Positions 28,029 through 30,729 of a stretch of DNA of 64,000 bases are shown piece after piece. Under the pieces are notes generated by a model. That model did not search any database. It saw only the letters and a list, made by a program, of their open reading frames with translations, and was not told where the DNA came from. The position numbers were made by a program, and so were the translations under genes. Origin of the DNA: Mixia osmundae IAM 14324 (Eukaryota > Basidiomycota > Mixiomycetes > Mixiales > Mixiaceae); assembly GCF_000708205.1 (NCBI RefSeq), contig NW_014575562.1, positions 1,322,257 to 1,386,256 on the forward strand. Direction: 5' to 3'. The number at the start of each line of letters is the position of its first letter. Position 1 is the stretch's first letter.

Positions 28029-30729
28029 ATGGCATCCCGCATCCTCTACAAGACATTGCCAGGCTTGGATCCGCTGGTGGTCGAGTACATAGCCAGCTTC
28101 GTCGATGACGACACGAATGACGCCGATTCGGAGGAGCTCGATGATTTGGTCAGGCCGACGCTCGAAAGTGAAGGCGTCAGCGAGGCAGACATGGTCACTG
28201 TCTGCACGGAGCTCAGAAGACTTCTGTCCGGCAAGACTACGAACGGCTATCACGTGAATGGCGGTCCCAGGGAACTCGAGCACGTCGTCGCTATGGACGC
28301 TCAGCCTGCAATGTCAAAGAGTGGCCTCATGCTCGGCAGCGTCGACATTGAATCGGCCGGCAAGTCGAGAGAGTCGCAGGTAGACATCCGCAAGCTAGAA
28401 AAGGCAGAGGCCAAGATCAAAGCTAAGATGGACAAGCGATCGAAGAAAAATCTGCCAGAGTTATACGAATCCTCGAAGCTTGTGGACGCTGCCCGGCAGC
28501 GCAAAGAGTATGAGGACCGCTACATGGCTGTCAATCCTTTGCAGACCGGTGCTGCAAAGGGCAAGAGCAAGGACATCCAGCTCGACAACATCGATGTCAA
28601 CTTCGGTAGCAATCGCATCCTCTCCGGCGCAACTCTCACCCTCGCTCACGGACGACGCTACGGTCTCGTCGGCCGCAACGGGATCGGCAAGTCGACCCTG
28701 CTGCGCACGCTCGCGTTCCGTGAAGTTGCTGTGCCCACGCATCTGTCGATCCTATACGTCGAGCAAGAAGTCTTGGGCGATGACACAAATGCCCTGGAGT
28801 CGGTCTTGCAGGCCGACGTGTGGCGTACGAGGCTCTTGCAGGAACAGGAAGAACTTAATGCTAAGCTATCCGGTCTCGAATCACTTCCAAATGGCAACAA
28901 TGGCACTGCAGACATTTCTGAAGCGGAAGGCTCGACGACGAACACGCGCAAGAAAGATGATGCTGCCGTTCGCTTAGGCGAAGTGCATCAGCTCTTGATC
29001 GACATAGAAGCTGAGACTGGCCCATCACGGGCTGCAGAGCTCCTCGCGGGCCTCGGCTTTAGCACGGATGACCAGAGCCGCGCAACACGTACCTTCTCCG
29101 GTGGCTGGCGCATGCGACTCTCTCTCGCTCGCGCACTCTTCTGCAAGCCGGACCTACTCATGCTCGACGAGCCTTCGTACGCTCGCTCATTCGATCCGGA
29201 GTCCCGGTCGCTGACCTCTTCTCATCCACAGCAACAATCTAGATCTCAACGCGCTCGCCTGGCTCGAAGACTATCTGCAAACCTGGCCAAACACGCTGCT
29301 CGTCGTCTCTCACGATCGCGCATTTTGTGTGTCCTGCTATGTGCTTCGAAGTCTATCGCTGACGCTACTTTCCAGTGGACCGCGTCGCGACAGATATCGT
29401 GCATCAACACTCGCAGCGTCTAGACTACTACAAAGGCACGCTTCATTCGACTGCATTGCATGTTTGCTCGCTAACATTCAACAGGCAATTTTACGCAATT
29501 TTATGCAACCAAGAGCGAGCGCAAGAAGAACCAACAGCGAGAATATGACAGTCAAAAACAGTACCGCGAACATCTGCAAGCCTTTATCGATCGCTGGCGG
29601 TACAATGCAAACAGGGCCGCTCAAGCTCAATCGAAAATTAAAATCCTGGAGAAGCTGCCTGATCTCGAACCACCAGAAGACGATGATGTGGTCCACTTTA
29701 CGTAAGCGCATGTCAATGCTGTGAAACACGCGCTCAATAGCCATCTGCAGCTTTGCTGAGGCAGACAAGTTATCGCCGCCATTGCTGCAGCTCAATGAGG
29801 TCAAGTTCAGCTATACGCCCGAGCGCGTGATCGTCGCCGGTGTCAACATCGATGTCGGTCTGGACTCGCGCATTGGCATCATTGGCCCCAATGTACGTCG
29901 TTCGAGGTCTGGATTATGCGAGCTCATGATTGCCGGTAGGGTGCTGGCAAGTCCACTTTGCTCAAAATGCTTATTGGCCAGCTCGAGCCATCTCAAGGGC
30001 AGCTCAATCGAAACGGCCGTCTGAGGATAGGCTGTCAGTCGGTCTGGCAAGCGTTGCGATTCCGCTGACTCAGCGCAGATTTTGCGCAACATCACATTGA
30101 TGCCCTCGATGTTGCTGTCTCGCCTGTTGCTTTCCTCATGAGGCAGCATCCCGGGAGGACGGAGCAAGAGTATCGTGCATTTCTTGGCCACTTTGGTATC
30201 ACTGGCATGACCAGCTTGCAAGTGATTGGGACATTATCAGGAGGTAGACCGCCCACACAAGTACCCTGACTGTACTAACGGAGCTGGTGTAGGTCAGAAG
30301 AGTAGGGTCGCCTTCGCATTGCTCAGCTTGGCCAGACCGCACATCCTGCTGCTCGACGAGCCCACCAACCATCTGGACATCGGTGAGTGCTTCGTGAGGT
30401 ACTCTGACTACGCTTGCTGACCTGCTTTGCAGAGGGCAAGCTGACGTCATGCCATCTGCTTCTGTGCTGACGAATGCGCAGGTTTGGACGGCCTGATAGA
30501 AGGCCTCAGCAAATGGAACGGTGGCGTAATCACCATCAGTCACGACGAACGCTTCATCAACGCCTGCTGTAAGCAGCTTTACATCTGCGCAGATGGCAAA
30601 GTCGAGATCTTTAAAGGAGATGTGTCGGCTTACAAGGTGAGCAAGATCGCCGATCGGTCACACAAGCTGACAAGATGTGCATTCTCGCAGTCACTCATTG
30701 TCAAGAACGCAAAGCTCAAGCCGACTTAG
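28029..30729 (+). CDS. GCN20: ABC-F ATPase GCN20
   Basis: Eleven exons give 735 residues, close to yeast Gcn20 (752). Introns: 29177-29231, 29327-29375, 29436-29484, 29702-29750, 29893-29939, 30034-30078, 30244-30292, 30383-30432, 30436-30481, 30637-30690. The N-terminal region (..[11 protein letters not shown]..) precedes two ABC domains: Walker [12 protein letters not shown], signature [12 protein letters not shown], Walker B LLMLDEPS; then [43 protein letters not shown]. Gcn20 works with Gcn1 on ribosomes to activate the eIF2-alpha kinase Gcn2 under amino-acid starvation. The first Walker B has DEPS-N-N rather than DEPT-N-H. Two introns are inferred GC-AG and one exon is only three bases. 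Confidence 0.94.
29436..29484 (+). other. inferred GC-AG intron in GCN20
   Basis: The exon ends ..TACTACAAAG, the intron begins GCACGC and ends CAACAG (49 bp, CTAAC branch-like site). This junction restores Tyr-Tyr-Lys-Gly-Asn-Phe, conserved in Gcn20. No GT donor nearby keeps the frame with a credible intron length. Confidence 0.7.
30433..30435 (+). other. inferred 3-nt microexon in GCN20
   Basis: The three bases AGG lie between a 50-bp intron (30383-30432, GTGAGT..TTTGCAG) and a 46-bp intron (30436-30481, GCAAGC..GCGCAG). Including them gives LDIEGLDGL, the family consensus after DEPTNH. Skipping them (one 98-bp intron) keeps frame but loses the Glu. Both flanking introns have usual lengths and their own GCTGAC branch-like motifs. 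Confidence 0.6.

What the first reader, a model, noticed from the sequence alone, without database searches (positions are those of the whole stretch)
30383..30481. Three-base microexon in GCN20
Sequence shows two introns of ordinary length (50 and 46 bp), each with its own branch-like GCTGAC, flanking the bases AGG. Including AGG gives LDIEGLDGL right after the second Walker B, matching the ABC-F consensus; skipping it keeps frame but deletes the Glu. The downstream intron would be GC-AG. A 3-nt exon is near the lower limit known for spliceosomes, and optional use would give two isoforms differing by one residue next to the ATPase site.
Basis: partly seen in the sequence, partly recalled or inferred. 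Interest (0 to 1): 0.72.

Follow-up and report, generated by a model that had tools for sequence, protein, structure and literature searches.

The report
Three-base exon in fungal GCN20 gene
A probably fungal gene for a translation-control protein very likely contains an exon of only three bases, needed to supply one amino acid whose place its relatives keep; such tiny exons are known in animals and plants, so this is a rare but recognisable gene structure that still needs an RNA test.

Summary
Within 30383-30481 lie two complete introns, 50 nt (GT-AG) and 46 nt (GC-AG), flanking AGG at 30433-30435. The inner acceptor plus branch site is not exceeded by any of 94 introns in a strict catalogue made from 264 kb of this genome, and no null sequence reached the observed pair of scores. 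A single 99-nt intron would be unusual: 93 of the 94 are 45-64 nt, though a looser, noisier list holds more long ones. Skipping AGG shortens a stretch that is 28 residues long in 103 of 103 distinct ABC-F segments from bacterial and viral contigs; Glu is the commonest residue there, 39 of 103. In the 24 NCBIfam models shown for both forms, the skipped form scores lower in all 24. The GC donor is ordinary here, 11 of 94 introns. A scan of 264 kb for 1-24 nt exons ranks this first of two hits. I read it as a constitutive 3-nt microexon spliced by intron definition. Regulated skipping has no support. No RNA evidence was available.

The parts
28029..30729 (+). GCN20-type ABC-F gene, 10 introns, 735 aa with the microexon included
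   Evidence: Exon joining gives one open frame of 735 aa and a stop with ABC_tran in two stretches and an ABC_tran_Xtn match
30293..30382 (+). Upstream exon, ends ...CTG GAC ATC G (phase 1)
   Evidence: holds Walker B and D-loop of the second ATPase domain (motif names recalled)
30383..30432 (+). Intron 1, 50 nt, GTGAGT...CAG
   Evidence: site score 20.6 bits, 87th percentile of 94 catalogued introns
30417..30421 (+). Branch-like CTGAC of intron 1
   Evidence: acceptor plus branch 15.1 bits, not exceeded by any of 94 catalogued introns
30433..30435 (+). 3-nt microexon AGG, completes GAG (Glu)
30436..30481 (+). Intron 2, 46 nt, GCAAGC...CAG
   Evidence: site score 15.7 bits, 45th percentile of 94 introns; 5 of the 11 catalogued GC donors score lower than this one
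30467..30471 (+). Branch-like CTGAC of intron 2
30482..30636 (+). Downstream exon, starts GT TTG GAC GGC CTG
29436..29484 (+). A second GC-AG intron of the same gene (49 nt)
   Evidence: its removal joins the frame through [13 protein letters not shown]

Best explanation
AGG at 30433-30435 is a real 3-nt coding exon, included in the main GCN20 transcript. The spliceosome recognises the two short flanking introns one at a time by intron definition. The strong GT-AG intron 1 is probably removed first, because U1 and the 3' splice-site factors cannot sit together on 3 nt; the GC-AG intron 2 then follows. The exon supplies the Glu just after the D-loop of the second ATPase domain and keeps the spacing of that domain. 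Shown by sequence: the signals, the lengths, the frame and the conserved spacing. Inferred: actual inclusion, the order of splicing, and that inclusion is constitutive.
For: Both introns match the genome's own intron model: 50 and 46 nt where 93 of 94 strict introns are 45-64 nt, and 88 of 93 are 40-64 nt under a flat length prior. Site scores 20.6 and 15.7 bits. Inner acceptor plus branch not exceeded by any of the 94; null 0 of 20,000 shuffles and 0 genomic grafts. Neither flanking intron is in the strict set; of this gene only 29702-29750 is. NHLD-to-SHD stretch 28 aa without gaps in 103 of 103 distinct segments (159 of 160 loci usable), Glu the commonest residue. Of the best 25 NCBIfam models listed for each form, 24 are shared; all 24 lose 1.8-8.8 bits on skipping, and with X in place of Glu all 24 score above the skipped form. 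Scan of 264 kb, both strands: 2 hits, this one first; four sham-donor controls gave 1, 0, 0, 0. The other eight introns of the gene are 45-55 nt.
Against: No RNA reads, cDNA or eukaryotic orthologues of related species could be searched. A single 99-nt intron is also in frame, with good outer sites (17.8 bits before the length term). Long introns are rare only in the strict set: the unfiltered list of the same gene finder has 67 of 415 in the 85-134 nt bins, which I take for false bridges between genes but did not check one by one; with a flat length prior 3 of 93 strict introns are 80 nt or more. The intron 2 donor is weak (3.4 bits, about the 9th percentile of all donors). The Glu itself is not invariant (39 of 103). 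The homologues were found partly by a DEPTNHLD pattern, and the first ATPase domains of two EF3-type genes of this genome have 29 residues there, one more, not one fewer. The Pfam ABC_tran match is the same with and without the residue, because it ends before it. The scan's coding cut-off was lowered after a first try missed this very locus. Exons this small are rare a priori.
Confidence: 0.9

Rival explanations
1. One 99-nt intron, 30383-30481: AGG and the inner signals are chance, and the protein lacks one residue after the D-loop.
For: In frame, GT-AG, good outer sites, 17.8 bits before the length term. My own gene finder chose it when exons under 20 nt were forbidden. Its unfiltered list holds 67 of 415 introns at 85-134 nt.
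Against: 99 nt lies outside the length range of the strict introns (93 of 94 are 45-64 nt). The stretch would be 27 residues where 103 of 103 segments have 28. Inner acceptor and branch are too strong for chance.
Confidence: 0.05
2. Cassette microexon: both forms are made and the choice tunes the ATPase of GCN20.
For: Skipping keeps the frame and has usable outer splice sites. A switch-like 20-nt microexon is reported in Trichoderma (PMC11121469, passages).
Against: The donor at 30383 favours the near acceptor by about 8 bits. The skipped form is one residue short where all 103 segments agree in length. No RNA evidence; I did not search for regulatory elements.
Confidence: 0.04
3. A nested arrangement such as a spliceosomal twin intron, where one intron must be removed to create a splice site of the other.
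For: Two introns 3 nt apart in a probable fungus; twin introns are described in fungi (PMC5639578, start of abstract and passages).
Against: Both introns have complete donor, branch and acceptor in the unspliced sequence, and neither interrupts a site of the other.
Confidence: 0.01

Closest known systems
3-nt microexon of Drosophila homothorax (PMC7392893, passages)
   Same: 3-nt spliceosomal exon in a coding region
   Different: That one is the first 3 nt of an alternative 48-nt exon in an animal; this one is free-standing, in a probable fungus, and predicted only
1-nt exon of plant APC11 (PMC4674806, abstract; PMC8831610, passages)
   Same: Constitutive ultra-short exon that annotation tends to miss
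   Different: 1 nt, plant, confirmed by RT-PCR sequencing; here 3 nt and unverified, with a GC-AG downstream intron
20-nt microexon of Trichoderma Xlr2 (PMC11121469, passages)
   Same: Fungal coding microexon
   Different: 20 nt, seen in transcripts and switch-like; here 3 nt with no sign of regulation
Microexons of Phanerochaete P450 genes (PMC1184071, passages)
   Same: Microexons among small introns of 45-55 bp in a basidiomycete
   Different: Shortest given there is 6 bp

Membership tests
Spliceosomal microexon (3 nt) | Complete introns on both sides with donor, branch and acceptor of the host's type | tested here: met
Spliceosomal microexon (3 nt) | Needed for the conserved protein | tested here: met
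   103 of 103 segments keep the length; 24 of 24 shared NCBIfam models, among the best 25 listed for each form, drop on skipping
Spliceosomal microexon (3 nt) | Present in mature RNA | not testable with these tools
   no transcripts held
Spliceosomal microexon (3 nt) | Conserved in related species | not testable with these tools
   the record has no relatives here; the ARB1-type and two EF3-type genes of this genome read through the D-loop of the second domain without an intron
GC-AG intron | GC donor with otherwise normal consensus and a real host population of such introns | tested here: met
   11 of 94, with a hand-set 3% share for C in the donor matrix, against 1 of 86 (GA) and 1 of 85 (GG) under the same share; 8 of the 11 GC junctions were tested, 6 fall inside a Pfam match and 2 do not
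GCN20/ABCF3 (ABC-F) | Two ABC domains with the ABC-F linker | tested here: met
   ABC_tran in two stretches and ABC_tran_Xtn
GCN20/ABCF3 (ABC-F) | Distinct from ARB1 | tested here: inconclusive
   Another gene of this genome matches ARB1 clearly better than ABCF1 (215.8 against 172.6 bits); the window gene scores 222 and 217.3; no entry named GCN20 or ABCF3 is among the 60 PDB hits listed of 63, so GCN20 is by elimination
GCN20/ABCF3 (ABC-F) | N-terminal Gcn1-binding region (recalled) | tested here: inconclusive
   181-residue N-terminal stretch present; its only PDB match has E 0.15

The most novel reading that the evidence does not exclude
A free-standing 3-nt exon, perhaps the smallest coding exon reported in a fungus, is spliced by intron definition alone with a GC donor, and its in-frame skipping yields a second GCN20 isoform with altered ATPase timing, linking splicing to the amino-acid starvation response.
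Probability: 0.06. Interest if true: 0.72.

Novelty: new member of a known kind. Interest (0 to 1): 0.45.

Why it matters
If RNA confirms it, this would be among the smallest coding exons known in a fungus, half the shortest in the fungal papers of which I read passages (6 bp, PMC1184071). Flanking introns of about 50 nt make a simple test of whether intron definition alone can handle exons too small for exon definition, an idea discussed for PRP-40 (PMC8378409, passages). It also warns that automatic annotation may drop the residue: my own gene finder with a 20-nt exon minimum did so. Searches for microexon with fungi (61 papers, 20 listed), microexon with basidiomycete (9, all listed) and microexons with fungal genomes, 3 nt and RNA-seq (0) showed no 3-nt fungal exon in the listed titles and starts of abstracts; the library is open-access only and I looked into few of these papers.

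Tried and rejected
One search failed on an import and was repeated. A first gene-finder run and two self-trained versions ran away into contig-long genes; none was used. The model used keeps the coding table fixed and its strict set counts only introns with strong coding flanks that break the frame if retained. Its unfiltered list (415 introns in genes scoring 50 or more, 67 of them in the 85-134 nt bins) still contains runs through intergenic stretches, as its GCN20 gene, chained on to the next gene, shows, so I did not use it for rates. A first microexon scan with too strict a coding cut-off found nothing, not even this exon; one search showed why, and one search repeated it with a lower cut-off chosen after that.

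Alternative splits: acceptor 30434 (1-nt exon) shifts the frame; splits with exons of 5 and 7 nt score 4.7 bits for the second intron; retention of either intron or both gives a stop. Intron duplication: 22% of 5,000 random pairs of catalogued introns align as well as these two or better. Introner copies: the 141-base stretch 30360-30500 has one match in the genome, itself.

Other 3-nt exons genome-wide: the pattern searches gave 12 GT-type matches (reversed-pattern control 9) and 55 GC-type matches (control 22), this site among the latter. I fetched 18 stretches: 11 of the 12 GT type and 7 of the other 54 GC type; 48 were not looked at. Of the 18, 16 had no pair of introns both above 15 bits; L204 and L206 did. 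In L206 the sequence after the first acceptor reads on as plausible coding sequence, so I take it for one ordinary intron. In L204 the more protein-like upstream frame meets a stop a few codons past the junction while another frame stays open, so it is doubtful rather than excluded (my reading by eye).

Full report
What is there. The gene at 28029-30729 reads through ten introns of 45-55 nt into a 735-residue ABC-F protein with two ABC_tran stretches and the ABC_tran_Xtn linker. Near the end of the second ATPase domain the frame leaves exon 30293-30382 at ATC G, and the homologous sequence resumes at 30482. Between lie 99 bases that hold two complete introns, 30383-30432 (GT-AG, 50 nt) and 30436-30481 (GC-AG, 46 nt), with AGG between them. 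Each has a CTGAC with 11 or 10 bases left to its 3' end.

Intron catalogue. No file of the genome is given for this record, so I took 200 kb of contig C1 with the 64-kb window and trained an intron model on them. The seeds were nine introns of this gene, intron 1 among them but not intron 2, plus made-up consensus strings; the matrices were then re-estimated from strict introns, that is introns with strong coding flanks that break the frame if retained. The final strict set holds 94 introns, of which only 29702-29750 belongs to this gene: 93 are 45-64 nt and one is 101 nt; 11 have a GC donor, with the share of C in the donor matrix set by hand to 3%. With a flat length prior the set is 93, with 88 at 40-64 nt, 3 at 80 nt or more, and 9 GC donors. 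Against this stands the unfiltered list of the same run, with 67 of 415 introns in the 85-134 nt bins; I take most of these for false bridges, without having checked them.

GC donors. Sham second donors under the same share gave 1 of 86 (GA) and 1 of 85 (GG). Of 8 of the 11 GC junctions checked, 6 lie inside a Pfam match, including two in one Ras-family protein (Ran-like, my naming), and 2 lie outside. So GC-AG is a normal class in this genome; the average in fungi is about 1.0% (PMC7072748, passages).

Scores. Intron 1 has 20.6 bits of site score (87th percentile of the 94), intron 2 has 15.7 (45th), and the single 99-nt intron 17.8. With the length term they are 16.8, 11.6 and 8.9. The inner acceptor plus branch, 15.1 bits, is not exceeded by any of the 94.

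Chance. Neither 20,000 dinucleotide shuffles of the interior nor the grafted genomic stretches (20,000 draws, those with N skipped) gave any exon of 1-30 nt with both scores as high. At lax cut-offs, 3-nt splits occur in 195 and 112 of these, so a weak split would have meant little; this one is not weak. A scan of both strands of 264 kb for exons of 1-24 nt gave two hits, this one first, and 1, 0, 0, 0 in four controls. The coding cut-off of that scan was lowered after a first try found nothing, so it is unbiased in place but not in threshold. Genome-wide, a strict 3-nt pattern with GT donors is not clearly enriched over its reversed control (12 against 9), which suggests that such exons are not common here.

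Protein. From NHLD to SHD the included form has 28 residues. Of 160 relatives from bacterial and viral contigs (the best 80 kept in each), 159 cover the stretch; they give 103 distinct segments, all 28 long without a gap; the residue at the spot is E in 39, D in 27, A in 14, Q in 8 and others in 15. In the PDB alignments shown, ARB1, ABCF1 and YheS have no gap there. In this genome the ARB1-type gene and the second domains of two EF3-type genes also have 28, and the first domains of the two EF3-type genes have 29; none has 27. None of these has an intron at the D-loop of the second domain. Skipping lowers all 24 NCBIfam models that appear in both lists of the best 25 by 1.8-8.8 bits; with X in place of Glu all 24 score above the skipped form, and one of them slightly above Glu, so the length matters more than the identity.

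Mechanism. With introns near 50 nt, pairing across the intron is the expected mode; exon definition on so few bases is proposed to be sterically infeasible (PMC8378409, passages). I expect intron 1 first because of its stronger signals, then the GC-AG intron 2. Failure of either gives an in-frame stop. Skipping is in frame but disfavoured by pairing scores and by the protein. Inclusion, order and constitutive use are inferred, not shown.

Identity. The gene is ABC-F by domains and relatives. That it is GCN20 rather than ARB1 follows from a separate, better ARB1 match at C1:820 kb and is not proved; no entry named GCN20 or ABCF3 is among the 60 PDB hits listed of 63. The host is probably a fungus (EF3-type genes, 13.5 Mb genome; inference); I name no species.

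Standing. Exons of 3 nt and even 1 nt are known in animals and plants (PMC7392893, passages; PMC4674806, abstract; PMC8831610, passages). Fungal microexons in the passages I read are 6 nt or longer (PMC1184071; PMC11121469). I therefore file it as a new member of a known kind, strongly predicted and awaiting RNA.

Noticed in passing
strict intron catalogue, window plus own genome C1:200001-400000 (L169-L188): About one intron in nine of the strict catalogue has a GC donor (11 of 94; 9 of 93 with a flat length prior), roughly ten times the fungal average of 1.0%; two of ten introns of GCN20 are GC-AG as well.
   Followed up: partly
own genome C1, about 308711-308832 (+): Candidate 24-nt exon AACTACACTGCAGATCTCGTCCAG between two 49-nt introns, the second hit of the microexon scan.
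   Followed up: no
window 64000: The window ends exactly at the end of contig C2 (1386256 bases); by eye no telomere-like repeat in the last 600 bases, which hold several N.
   Followed up: no
L206 (own genome C5:575380-575710): A 3-nt pattern match with good scores that on reading looks like one ordinary intron followed by continuous coding sequence; a warning that signal scores alone mislead.
   Followed up: partly
L204 (own genome C3:522630-522960): Two good introns around CCC (16.3 and 17.3 bits) in weakly coding flanks; the frame does not clearly carry through.
   Followed up: partly
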